IMG/VR virus record: IMGVR_UViG_3300035665_000213
Location: 1 to 26,118 of that record
Strand: one strand, 5' to 3'
Length of the DNA stretch: 26,118 bases
Origin: a virus
Every line of letters starts with the position of its first letter. The stretch's first letter is position 1. Of the stretch, positions 1,347-4,886 are shown piece after piece. The position numbers and the translations under genes were made by a program. The notes under the pieces were generated by a model. The model did not search any database. It was not told where the DNA came from and worked only from the letters and a program-made list of their open reading frames with translations.

Positions 1347-2012
1347 ATGAACATCGTAAAACACACCGCCACCGAAATAATGAGCATCGGTAAGGCGTTT
1401 GCGGAATCGGGAATGTTCCCCGACATCAAATCCGCCGCTCAAGCAATCGTAAAGATACAAGCAGGTGCAGAGTTGGGTATCGCACCTTTTGCCGCAATGT
1501 CCGGTATACACATTATTTCCGGCAAGCCTACCATTGGGGCGGGCGTTATGGCTGCAATGGTTAAAGCATCGGGTAAGTACAATTATCGGGTAACGGAGCA
1601 GACCGACAAAGTATGCTCTATTGATTACTACGAAGGTGCTGAAATGATAGGTACCTCAACCTTCACTATTGAAGATGCAAAGAAAGCAGGTACTAAAAAT
1701 ACCGACAAGTTCCCACGTAATATGTTATTTGCCAGGGCGATGAGTAACGGTGTTAAGTGGTACACCCCGGATGTATTTGCCGGCCCTGTGTACGTGCCGG
1801 AGGAGATGGAGTTCCCTATGATACAGGAACCTACAAAACGCATCCTAACGGATAGTGAGTTTCAAACTGCTATCGTAAAAATTCAAGACGGCGAATGTAT
1901 CAAAGGCAGCACCGTAACCGTGTACGATTGGGTGAAAACCGAATGCCAATTAACTGAAGCACAACAAAATACCTTTAACCTTTTAAACACCCAAGACAAT
2001 GGAATTAATTAA
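1347..2012 (+). CDS. recT: RecT-family single-strand annealing protein
   Basis: A 221-residue protein with the RecT/phage annealing-protein signature. The region IVKIQAGAELGIAPFAAMSG (about residues 35-54) followed by a G-K-P-T-I-G stretch and a Y-N-Y-R-V strand is typical of RecT-like annealases that coat single-stranded DNA and pair complementary strands. Length is on the short side but within the family. The start ATG at 1347 has an A-rich leader and no Shine-Dalgarno, as usual for Bacteroidota. It heads the rightward early operon and overlaps the next gene by 14 bases, suggesting translational coupling. A dedicated RecE/lambda-exo partner is not visible; the nuclease at 4440 is of another type. 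Role: recombination-dependent replication or repair in the infected cell. Confidence 0.85.
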   Translation: MNIVKHTATEIMSIGKAFAESGMFPDIKSAAQAIVKIQAGAELGIAPFAAMSGIHIISGKPTIGAGVMAAMVKASGKYNYRVTEQTDKVCSIDYYEGAEMIGTSTFTIEDAKKAGTKNTDKFPRNMLFARAMSNGVKWYTPDVFAGPVYVPEEMEFPMIQEPTKRILTDSEFQTAIVKIQDGECIKGSTVTVYDWVKTECQLTEAQQNTFNLLNTQDNGIN

Positions 2013-2691: not shown

Positions 2692-2783
2692 AACCACCTT
2701 GGCGTAACCGAAAATAAATATCGGCTTGGGATAACGTCCTCATACAAGATGGGGAGATACGAGTTCGAATCTCGTAGGTGGTT
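2692..2783 (+). tRNA. Atypical tRNA or tRNA-like element
   Basis: About 92 bases fold like a tRNA. The acceptor AACCACCT (2692-2699) pairs perfectly with AGGTGGTT (2776-2783). The T arm is ACGAG, loop TTCGAAT, CTCGT (2759-2775). An anticodon-like arm is CCTCA, loop TACAAGA, TGGGG (2738-2754), followed by a 4-base variable loop. U8, A14, a GG pair and A21 are all placed as in real tRNAs, with D stem GCGT/ACGT. Oddities: the D loop is 28 bases and contains an extra small hairpin (CCGA at 2708, TCGG at 2721), the base before the putative CAA anticodon is A rather than U, and CCA is not encoded. It may be a degenerate phage tRNA or a tRNA mimic. The anticodon is uncertain. Confidence 0.45.
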
Positions 2784-2819
2784 CTAAAAGGCGCTGGCTC
2801 CCTATATCCAGTCTTAAAC

Positions 2820-3092
2820 ATGGCTACATTCTACACAGGCAGCATCTGCCTATCAGACATCCCTAAGGACAAAATTACCGAAGCAAAGAACGGTAAGAAG
2901 TATCTAAATTTAACCCTATGGGTGAATGACACGGCCGACCAGTACGGAAACATTGGAAGCATTCAAGTTTCGCAGACTAAGGAGCAAAGGGATGCACAGG
3001 AAAAAAAGCAGTATATTGGGAACTTTAAGACACCAACTGCACAAGCAGCACCTGCGCAGGCAGCTACTGAAGATTCCGGATTACCATTCTAA
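2820..3092 (+). CDS. SSB-like single-stranded DNA-binding protein
   Basis: A 90-residue protein. The first two-thirds form an OB-fold-like strand pattern (MATFYTGSICLSDIP, then GKKYLNLTLWVND). The C-terminus is a flexible Ala/Gln/Pro-rich linker ending in DSGLPF, the acidic-hydrophobic tip by which SSB proteins recruit partners. It is shorter than bacterial SSB (about 110-180 aa), as for compact phage versions. The frame stays open upstream to 2778, but that would run into the tRNA-like element; the ATG at 2820 starts where the folded part starts. Its place in the recT operon supports a role in replication and recombination. The hairpin right after its stop may tune expression. Confidence 0.75.
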   Translation: MATFYTGSICLSDIPKDKITEAKNGKKYLNLTLWVNDTADQYGNIGSIQVSQTKEQRDAQEKKQYIGNFKTPTAQAAPAQAATEDSGLPF

Positions 3093-3137: not shown

Positions 3138-3332
3138 ATGACCATCCACCAATACATCGAAAGAAAATACTTCCGGCTAAACACTATGGCAACAATACGC
3201 AACGGGGTATTATACCATTGGGTTAATAACCGTTGGATGCCGAACAAGGAATTTGAACGGATATACCCTCTGCCGAATAAGGTGGGAAAGCAACTTACTA
3301 ATCTTGATAAGAATAAGAACTCATTACTATGA
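3138..3332 (+). CDS. Small hypothetical protein, 64 aa
   Basis: A basic 64-residue protein starting MTIHQYIERKYFRLNTMATI, with a Trp-rich centre (LYHWVNNRWMPN). I recognise no family. An internal Met17 is an alternative start. It follows the hairpin after the SSB gene, and its stop overlaps the methyltransferase start (ATGA, 3329-3332), so the two are likely translationally coupled. A small helper of the methyltransferase is possible but not shown. Confidence 0.55.
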   Translation: MTIHQYIERKYFRLNTMATIRNGVLYHWVNNRWMPNKEFERIYPLPNKVGKQLTNLDKNKNSLL

Positions 3333-4474
3333 CACACGGATCATTATTCTCCGGCATAGGCGGCTTTGACTTAGCTGCCGAATGGATGGGTTGGGAAAAC
3401 GTATTCCATTGCGAATGGAATGAGTTTGGTAAAAAAGTATTACATCATTATTGGCCACAATCAATTTCATATCATGACATCACTAAAACAGACTTCACTA
3501 TTCACCGAGGAAAAATTGACATCCTCACGGGTGGTTTTCCGTGCCAACCGTACTCAAGTGCCGGAAAGCGAAAAGGCAAAGAAGATGAGCGACATCTCTG
3601 GCCGGAAATGCTTAGAGCAATTAGAGAAATTCAACCACGTTGGGTTGTGGGCGAGAATGTTCTCGGCCTTGTTAATTGGTCAGGGGGATTGGTTTTCCAC
3701 GAGGTGCAAGCTGACTTGGAAGCTGCGGGGTACGAAGTATGGCCGTATGTACTTCCAGCTGTATCCGTTAACGCTCCCCACAGAAGAGATAGGGTTTGGT
3801 TTGTTGCCTACGCCAACTTGTGCGGAAACGATACAACCGAAGGAGGCAAGAGAAGTTTTCGGAAACAACCGAATAAAAAGCAACAACGGGATAGAAGGGC
3901 AATGCAAACTAACGGACTTAGCAATGAATGGCCTACTCCCCACCCCAACGGCGTTCGATTACAACAGCGCAAGAACACCGGAGAAATGGGAGGAGGACAA
4001 ACAGAAATGGGCGGACAAAGGAGTGAATCTACAAATGCCATTGAAACAAATGGCAAGGCTGCAAATGTTACCCACCCCAACGGCAATGGATTCAACCAAC
4101 GCAACGGCAACGATGAAGAGCAGCCAAGTGAAAGAGGGGAGTATGCACTCTGTAACGCTGACACGGGCGATGAGTATGGGGATGTTGCCGACACCAATGG
4201 CATCGGATTGCGGGGAGAAAGTAACGGGATTGGAAAATCAAGATTCACTAACGAAGCGGGCGAGATTGGAAACTGGCAAAACTTCCCAACTCAATCCCCT
4301 ATTTGTTCTCGAAATGATGGGCTTTCCTCCCGACTGGACAACATTACCTTTTCTAAGTGGAGAAACGAATCAATCAAAGCAGCAGGTAACGCTATAGTAC
4401 CGCAAGTCGTTTTAATGATATTTAAGGCTATTGAAGAATATGAAACAACACCCCCTCTGGAAAATACGCTATAA
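3329..4474 (+). CDS. dcm: C5-cytosine DNA methyltransferase
   Basis: A 381-residue protein with the ordered motifs of C5-cytosine methyltransferases. Motif I LFSGIGGFDLA (residues 6-16) binds S-adenosylmethionine; motif IV GGFPCQPYSS (68-77) holds the catalytic Cys72; motif VI ENV (109-111); motif VIII HRRDRVW (151-157); and motif X GNAIVPQV (353-360) closes the fold. Between about 165 and 315 the target-recognition part is Asn/Gly/Gln-rich and carries repeated N-G motifs (HPNGVR, HPNGNG, DTNGIG). The enzyme would methylate phage DNA and probably shield it from host restriction; no cognate endonuclease is recognisable. A 307-codon ORF in another frame lies wholly inside this gene, which explains the odd composition. 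It overlaps the genes on both sides. Confidence 0.9.
   Translation: MTHGSLFSGIGGFDLAAEWMGWENVFHCEWNEFGKKVLHHYWPQSISYHDITKTDFTIHRGKIDILTGGFPCQPYSSAGKRKGKEDERHLWPEMLRAIREIQPRWVVGENVLGLVNWSGGLVFHEVQADLEAAGYEVWPYVLPAVSVNAPHRRDRVWFVAYANLCGNDTTEGGKRSFRKQPNKKQQRDRRAMQTNGLSNEWPTPHPNGVRLQQRKNTGEMGGGQTEMGGQRSESTNAIETNGKAANVTHPNGNGFNQRNGNDEEQPSERGEYALCNADTGDEYGDVADTNGIGLRGESNGIGKSRFTNEAGEIGNWQNFPTQSPICSRNDGLSSRLDNITFSKWRNESIKAAGNAIVPQVVLMIFKAIEEYETTPPLENTL
3474..4397 (+). CDS. Overlapping LPTP-repeat protein nested in the methyltransferase gene
   Basis: A 307-codon ORF in the +1 frame relative to the methyltransferase, from ATG 3474 (the frame stays open with an earlier ATG at 3420). It does not look like a shadow. 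It begins MTSLKQTSLFTEEKLTSS, contains CLEQLEKFNHVGLWARMFSA and STRCKLTWKLRGTKYGRMYF, carries four LPTP motifs (residues 111, 155, 199, 238), and ends with SQLNPLFVLEMMGFPPDWT. I recall such LLPTPTAxD and LNPxFVxxMMGFPxxW stretches from phage and bacterial proteins annotated near or as cytosine methyltransferases. The function is not known; a DNA-recognition partner of the methyltransferase is a guess. Expression would need internal initiation inside the methyltransferase mRNA. Confidence 0.65.
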   Translation: MTSLKQTSLFTEEKLTSSRVVFRANRTQVPESEKAKKMSDISGRKCLEQLEKFNHVGLWARMFSALLIGQGDWFSTRCKLTWKLRGTKYGRMYFQLYPLTLPTEEIGFGLLPTPTCAETIQPKEAREVFGNNRIKSNNGIEGQCKLTDLAMNGLLPTPTAFDYNSARTPEKWEEDKQKWADKGVNLQMPLKQMARLQMLPTPTAMDSTNATATMKSSQVKEGSMHSVTLTRAMSMGMLPTPMASDCGEKVTGLENQDSLTKRARLETGKTSQLNPLFVLEMMGFPPDWTTLPFLSGETNQSKQQVTL

Positions 4475-4886
4475 CACCGCCCATTACAATTACACCCTTG
4501 AGCGTACCCCGAATGTGGTAAAGGATGGATTCTACACCGGGCCGCCTACGCCTGTGGTTACTAAGTCCAATGGGCTGACAACATTCATAATCAACTTCCT
4601 GAACTGGTCGGGCTACCGGGCTACACGGATCAACACTATGGGTAGGCAGATTAACGGTAAGTTTATCCCATCGGCAACCCGGAAGGGTACGGCTGATATT
4701 TCGGCTACGATTCGTGATAAGAACGGAATAGGCAGAAGCATTATGATAGAAATAAAAGTTGGGAAAGATAAAGCATCGCAGTATCAATTAGATGAGCAAA
4801 AAAAAGAAAGACAGGCAGGCGGCATCTATGAATTTATATCTACACCGGAACAATTCTTTACGTTATTTGATTCAATAATAAATTAA
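4440..4886 (+). CDS. PD-(D/E)XK nuclease, VRR-NUC-like
   Basis: A 148-residue protein from ATG 4440 (a TTG at 4431 is a less likely start). The core is GTADISATI, then SIMIEIKVGKDKASQYQLDE and a Tyr/Phe strand. This gives the G-x-x-D ... E-x-K of PD-(D/E)XK nucleases of the VRR-NUC/Hjc type, with the Asp in G-T-A-D and the Glu/Lys in E-I-K. The later Gln in Q-Y-Q-L-D-E is typical of the family. Such phage enzymes cut branched or flap DNA in recombination. It overlaps the methyltransferase end by 35 bases. It could supply nuclease activity for the RecT system or resolve replication intermediates. Acting as the restriction partner of the methyltransferase is possible but less likely. Confidence 0.75.
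   Translation: MKQHPLWKIRYNTAHYNYTLERTPNVVKDGFYTGPPTPVVTKSNGLTTFIINFLNWSGYRATRINTMGRQINGKFIPSATRKGTADISATIRDKNGIGRSIMIEIKVGKDKASQYQLDEQKKERQAGGIYEFISTPEQFFTLFDSIIN

What the first reader, a model, noticed from the sequence alone, without database searches (positions are those of the whole stretch)
3801..4215. Same repeats read as LPTP in one frame and as N-G motifs in the other
At 3804, 3936, 4068 and 4185 four similar DNA units are spaced 132, 132 and 117 bases apart. In the nested frame they give LPTPTCA, LPTPTAF, LPTPTAM, LPTPMAS. In the methyltransferase frame the same bases give VAYANLCG, HPNGVR, THPNGNG, ADTNGIG. A short DNA repeat thus carries two protein repeats at once, in the region where the methyltransferase should recognise its target. 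It suggests the recognition part grew by duplicating a unit that encodes both proteins.
Basis: seen in the sequence. Interest (0 to 1): 0.75.

Follow-up and report, generated by a model that had tools for sequence, protein, structure and literature searches.

The report
Nested, shuffled DNA-recognition modules in methyltransferase
A phage DNA-methylating enzyme is encoded as two proteins written over the same DNA, and the hidden inner protein carries a row of interchangeable, never-repeated modules (most likely its DNA-reading parts) that phages swap as whole units, so the outer protein reads the same DNA only as filler that must stay free of stop codons.

Summary
In detail: LPTP heads at 3804, 3936, 4068 and 4185, with the same bases read differently in the methyltransferase frame. 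The outer ORF (alpha, 3329-4474) is a C5-cytosine methyltransferase with motifs I-VIII and X but no motif IX. The nested +1 ORF (beta, about 3474-4397, phrog_1008) carries motif IX, preceded by an array of 28-50-residue modules that each begin with LPTP. In 239 of 240 related loci beta lies in the same +1 frame. Among 205 distinct loci, 633 modules fall into 164 families, recombined as whole units. No array holds one family twice (0 of 168; 17 expected on shuffling), and modules within an array are no more alike than random ones, so local duplication is not supported. In the modules the beta residues are under selection; alpha residues drift neutrally (51 silent changes, 51.1 expected) but alpha stops are avoided (35 against 207). 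Alpha there is predicted disordered. Best reading: a split C5-methyltransferase like M.EcoHK31I whose nested subunit carries exchangeable tandem target-recognition modules, as in multispecific phage methylases. The split, nested architecture is known; the shuffled array in an overprinted frame looks like a new variant. Recognition itself is inferred.

The parts
3329..4474 (+). alpha: C5-cytosine DNA methyltransferase, 381 aa; motifs I-VIII (residues 1-164) and X; lacks motif IX
   Evidence: PF00145 E 4.7e-45; profile matches M.HhaI over motifs I-VIII only; AF2 residues 1-164 pLDDT mostly 80-95, Foldseek M.HhaI
3474..4397 (+). beta: nested +1-frame protein (ORF open from 3375, ATGs at 3420 and 3474; conserved ATG at 3474, 307 aa)
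   Evidence: phrog_1008 E 1e-30; +1 overlap in 239/240 loci; beta-frame stops vanish from about 10 codons upstream of PCQ onward while third-frame stops stay at 5-10%
3804..3935 (+). beta module 1 (family m31), head LPTPTCAE
3936..4067 (+). beta module 2 (family m03), head LPTPTAFD; same family in 19 loci
4068..4184 (+). beta module 3 (family m01), head LPTPTAMD; the commonest module, in 70 of 86 loci
4185..4286 (+). beta module 4, last of array (family m02), head LPTPMASD
4281..4337 (+). motif IX in beta (TSQLNPLFVLEMMGFPPDW)
   Evidence: matrix from beta motif hits motif IX in exact register in 75 of 78 single-chain C5-MTases; absent from alpha
3821..4312 (+). alpha residues 165-328: predicted disordered filler that overlaps the module array
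   Evidence: AF2 pLDDT under 50, almost no secondary structure; alpha residues neutral in modules
4385..4411 (+). alpha motif X (GNAIVPQVV); beta stops inside it
   Evidence: alpha-only selection resumes here

Best explanation
The locus encodes one heteromeric C5-cytosine methyltransferase in overlapping frames. Alpha supplies the catalytic domain (motifs I-VIII and X). Beta, started internally and read in the +1 frame, supplies motif IX and, in front of it, a row of LPTP-headed modules that I infer to be target-recognition modules. Each module would read a different short target, so the enzyme would protect phage DNA from several restriction systems at once. Phages exchange, gain and lose modules as whole units through recombination at the near-identical head DNA. 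Alpha reads the array only as a disordered linker whose sequence does not matter provided it stays open. Shown here: the split of motifs, the +1 nesting, modularity, non-redundancy, whole-unit indels, beta-only constraint and alpha stop avoidance. Inferred: alpha-beta assembly, recognition by the modules, multiple targets, anti-restriction role, and the recombination mechanism.
For: Alpha matches M.HhaI only over motifs I-VIII and keeps motif X; beta has motif IX, whose matrix falls exactly on motif IX in 75 of 78 single-chain C5-MTases (column-shuffled mean 0.20, max 11). Nesting in +1 in 239/240 loci; the exception L143 has a frameshifted alpha. The constrained frame switches along the gene (changes at alpha-codon positions 1/2/3): alpha-only 424/208/1399; motifs IV-VIII 898/473/1978; modules 2468/992/639; motif IX 573/170/225; motif X 109/72/350. 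In modules, beta-silent changes number 2372; of these alpha-silent 51 (51.1 expected), alpha stops 35 (207 expected). 633 modules in 164 families; no repeats in 168 distinct arrays (shuffles mean 17.2, min 7). L021 and L014 have identical flanks and one exact 96-bp module indel between 17-bp identical heads. Alpha 165-328 predicted disordered. Module length and place (28-50 aa, directly before motif IX) resemble tandem TRDs; the SPbeta MTase has two TRD-like cores about 45 aa apart.
Against: No biochemistry. The beta AF2 model is poor (pLDDT 53), so a TRD fold is not shown. Beta has no PDB or Pfam sequence hit. The module-head matrix on T-[LIVM] TRD cores of single-chain enzymes is only suggestive (25/78 against shuffled mean 9.8 but max 51). 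For M.EcoHK31I the literature places the predicted TRD in the large subunit (PMC3404938). Non-redundancy could also arise because identical modules delete each other by recombination. Parsimony counts do not model recombination between modules.
Confidence: 0.72

Rival explanations
1. One reading: a dual-coding DNA unit duplicated locally, and both protein readings of the repeat are functional and selected.
For: Heads do repeat in both frames and units vary by whole numbers.
Against: No array repeats a module family; within-array similarity equals between-array similarity. Alpha residues in modules evolve neutrally and the alpha stretch is predicted disordered.
Confidence: 0.05
2. Beta is a motif-IX-bearing partner of alpha as in M.EcoHK31I, but the modules are not recognition domains; they are spacers or protein-binding repeats that evade host anti-methylase factors.
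For: Motif IX is shown; TRD homology of modules is not.
Against: Alpha has no other folded region between motifs VIII and X that could recognise DNA; place, size and non-redundancy match tandem TRDs.
Confidence: 0.17
3. Beta is an independent protein (for example an anti-restriction or regulatory factor) overprinted on the methyltransferase, with the motif IX likeness coincidental.
For: No experimental link; beta alone has no Pfam domain.
Against: Exact motif IX register in 75/78 enzymes and its absence from alpha in the same loci; invariable nesting.
Confidence: 0.06

Closest known systems
M.EcoHK31I (YGGCCR), two-polypeptide C5-methyltransferase
   Same: Large subunit with motifs I-VIII and X, small subunit with motif IX (PMC3404938); beta nested in alpha in another frame (from memory of Lee et al. 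1995, NAR 23:103; paper not held)
   Different: There the predicted TRD is assigned to the large subunit; here the alpha stretch is disordered and neutral in the module array, and beta carries up to six exchangeable modules. Sequence kinship could not be tested.
Multispecific phage C5-methyltransferases (SPR, phi3T, rho11, SPbeta, H2)
   Same: Several tandem recognition units of about 40 aa directly before motif IX, phage-borne (PMC8936443 for the tandem domains; SPbeta mtbP; unit size partly from memory)
   Different: Those are single chains in one frame; here the units lie in a separate, nested, +1-frame subunit and show combinatorial shuffling over at least 164 families.
Paenibacillus larvae phage internal genes (Diva gp50, Lily gp63), phrog_1008
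   Same: Nested +1 ORF inside a C5-methyltransferase, already annotated as internal gene or DNA methyltransferase
   Different: These nested proteins are shorter, with one to a few units; I found no described function for them.
M.AquI split C5-methyltransferase
   Same: Two polypeptides make up one C5-MTase (PMC3404938)
   Different: Described as split within the variable region, with motifs IX and X both in the small subunit.
ShiLan hidden HNH endonuclease in a phage methylase (PMC11855218)
   Same: Alternate-frame gene read as open filler by a methylase
   Different: A mobile homing endonuclease, not part of the enzyme.

Membership tests
C5-cytosine DNA methyltransferase (PF00145), alpha | Catalytic motifs I, IV (PCQ), VI (ENV), VIII | tested here: met
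C5-cytosine DNA methyltransferase (PF00145), alpha | Motif IX in the same chain | tested here: not met
   absent in alpha, present in beta
M.EcoHK31I-type split C5-MTase | Motifs I-VIII and X in large chain, motif IX in small chain | tested here: met
M.EcoHK31I-type split C5-MTase | Small chain nested in the large gene in another frame | tested here: met
   that this holds for M.EcoHK31I itself is from memory
M.EcoHK31I-type split C5-MTase | Sequence homology to M.EcoHK31I alpha and beta | not testable with these tools
   its sequence is not held
M.EcoHK31I-type split C5-MTase | Recognition domain in the large chain (as predicted for M.EcoHK31I, PMC3404938) | tested here: not met
   alpha 165-328 predicted disordered, residues neutral in modules
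M.EcoHK31I-type split C5-MTase | Both chains needed for activity | not testable with these tools
   needs biochemistry
Multispecific phage C5-MTase | Tandem, mutually different units of about 40 aa before motif IX | tested here: met
Multispecific phage C5-MTase | Units homologous in sequence or fold to TRDs | tested here: inconclusive
   head matrix suggestive only; beta model poor
Multispecific phage C5-MTase | All in one polypeptide | tested here: not met
   split between frames
Multispecific phage C5-MTase | Methylates several different targets | not testable with these tools
   needs methylome data
phrog_1008 | Profile match | tested here: met
   E 1e-30 for the window, all 56 members of the alignment match

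The most novel reading that the evidence does not exclude
A multispecific methyltransferase whose recognition repertoire is a combinatorial, non-redundant, recombination-swapped module array written in a frame overlapping its own catalytic subunit, so that evolution of specificity is confined to the nested frame while the overlapping subunit tolerates any sequence that stays open.
Probability: 0.65. Interest if true: 0.78.

Novelty: new variant of a known kind. Interest (0 to 1): 0.66.

Why it matters
It would show how phages assemble broad anti-restriction protection from swappable cassettes, explain why a large family of nested ORFs (phrog_1008), annotated only by association, keeps its LPTP repeats, and give a naturally split C5-methyltransferase with plug-in specificity units. 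It is also a clean case of overlapping genes in which constraint switches from one frame to the other and back. Each module predicts a distinct methylation motif, so the idea is directly testable by co-expression and methylome sequencing.

Tried and rejected
Beta structure prediction (51 sequences) was low confidence (pLDDT 53, pTM 0.24); the fold search with it gave only one match (Z 2.4, 45 residues) and is uninformative. Beta profile against PDB sequences: no hit; Pfam: only chance hits such as Hanta_nucleocap at E 0.012. HHalign of beta C-terminus against a single SPbeta sequence failed because the profile had one member; replaced by matrix scans. Module-head matrix against TRD cores: suggestive, not significant. 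Chance open frame rejected: beta-frame stops near zero over about 17,900 locus-codons while third-frame stops stay at 5-10%. Special conservation of the N-G motif in alpha: base usage at the beta wobble positions of the heads is not far from that elsewhere in the modules, so the motif looks like codon choice. Literature: M.EcoHK31I appears in 4 held papers; Lee 1995 is not held; no held paper found describing LPTP arrays.

Full report
OBSERVATION. The same bases read VAYANL, HPNGV, HPNGN, ADTNGI in the methyltransferase frame. DNA likeness between units is limited to the head, except for 47 nt at 72% between units 2 and 3.

WHAT THE TWO FRAMES ARE. The outer frame (alpha) is a C5-cytosine methyltransferase (PF00145). 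Its profile matches M.HhaI only through motif VIII; it keeps motif X (GNAIVPQ) but has no motif IX. AlphaFold gives a confident catalytic domain at residues 1-164 and unstructured sequence at 165-328, just where the repeats lie. The nested +1 frame (beta) matches phrog_1008 and ends in TSQLNPLFVLEMMGFPPDW plus a short tail. A matrix from 115 such beta segments, scanned over 78 non-redundant single-chain C5-methyltransferases, has its best window exactly on their motif IX in 75, against a mean of 0.2 (maximum 11) for column-shuffled matrices. So the missing motif of alpha sits in beta.

CONSERVATION OF THE NESTING. Relatives in viral contigs, bacterial genomes and annotated phages gave 240 sequences including the window; in 239 beta lies in the +1 frame of alpha and overlaps it. 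The exception, L143, has a frameshifted alpha. More distant phages (N15 gp58, SEN5_42, BcepC6B gp33, Xanthomonas PhiXhv-18) also hold a nested +1 frame with LPTP-like units (W in place of L) and a motif-IX-like end. Stops in the beta frame are common upstream (0.02-0.06 per codon over most bands) and vanish from about ten codons before PCQ onward, while the third frame keeps 0.05-0.10. A start codon, mostly ATG, lies 22, 23 or 27 codons before PCQ in many loci; the window's is 3474.

MODULES, NOT DUPLICATES. Cutting beta at the heads gives 633 modules in the 205 distinct loci (28-50 residues as a rule, mostly 1-6 per array), in 164 families at 50% identity. Families recur in different arrays with many different neighbours: the commonest has 30 different left and 37 different right neighbour families. 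No array has the same family twice (0 of 168 distinct arrays; shuffled mean 17.2, minimum 7). Within-array identity outside the head is 0.167, the same as 0.172 between unrelated modules. This argues against growth by local duplication. The window array is m31-m03-m01-m02 in the numbering. Loci L021 and L014 have identical flanks and differ by one exact 96-bp module, bounded on both sides by the same 17-bp head sequence GGGATGTTGCCGACACC; 136 pairs of loci have at least 90% identical upstream flanks but different arrays.

WHICH READING IS SELECTED. Substitutions reconstructed by parsimony show a switch of frame. Upstream of beta and in motif X, alpha codon position 3 changes most. In motifs IV-VIII alpha still dominates, but beta stops are avoided: 35 against about 109 expected from the share of alpha-silent changes that would make one (computed). 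In the modules the pattern reverses: position 1 of alpha, the wobble base of beta, takes 2468 of 4099 changes. Among 2372 beta-silent changes in modules, alpha-silent ones number 51 with 51.1 expected, so alpha residues are free; yet alpha stops number 35 with 207 expected, so alpha must stay open. In motif IX both frames show constraint.

MECHANISM. The parts add up to one split enzyme: alpha catalyses, beta completes the small domain. Since alpha has no folded or conserved stretch between motifs VIII and X, target recognition has to come from beta, and the modules lie exactly where TRDs lie. Their tandem order, mutual difference and position are those of multispecific phage C5-methyltransferases, in which tandem recognition domains give multiple targets (PMC8936443 and references therein). 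I infer that each module reads one target and that phages collect modules against the restriction systems they meet. Assembly, recognition and expression are not shown here; the beta model was too poor to test the fold.

COMPARISON. M.EcoHK31I has the same division of motifs between two chains (PMC3404938), and I recall that its small chain is nested in the large gene. Nested ORFs in Paenibacillus phages are already annotated as internal genes. What I could not find described is the exchangeable module array in the nested frame, nor the neutrality of the overlapping alpha sequence. The literature places the M.EcoHK31I TRD in the large chain; if it belongs to this family, the present data suggest that this should be re-examined. 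The literature search covered open-licence papers only.

LIMITS. The 240 loci include overlapping fetches of the same contigs; 205 are distinct. Module borders were set by pattern and a few are wrong. Parsimony ignores recombination. Non-redundancy has an alternative cause, deletion between identical neighbours, which would also favour varied arrays.

Noticed in passing
window 1347-2009: RecT-like single-strand annealing protein upstream of the methyltransferase (phrog_561, E 2.6e-20); a phage recombinase tolerant of short homologies could drive module exchange.
   Followed up: no
window 4431-4883: Weak endonuclease match (phrog_93, E 1.4e-4) of an ORF whose start overlaps the end of alpha; Bacteroides phages L081 and L082 have VRR-NUC genes a few genes upstream of theirs.
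   Followed up: no
L143: Mucilaginibacter locus with alpha frameshifted near motif VIII while beta and its modules stay open.
   Followed up: partly
L014 and L021: Exact one-module indel between otherwise identical arrays, bounded by 17-bp identical heads.
   Followed up: yes
L025, L028, L029 (beta): The commonest module is shortened by 57 nt in frame (LPTPTAMDSTNATSTMSMGM, 20 aa), perhaps a dead module on its way out.
   Followed up: no
L294-L373: SPbeta-like single-chain C5-methyltransferases in viral contigs vary widely in length; some carry several P-T-[LIV] cores about 40 aa apart, a possible single-frame counterpart of the module array.
   Followed up: partly
window 2700-2785: Sequence resembling a tRNA 3' half (GTTCGAATCTCGTAG) at the start of the 2778-3092 ORF, but ARAGORN finds no tRNA.
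   Followed up: partly
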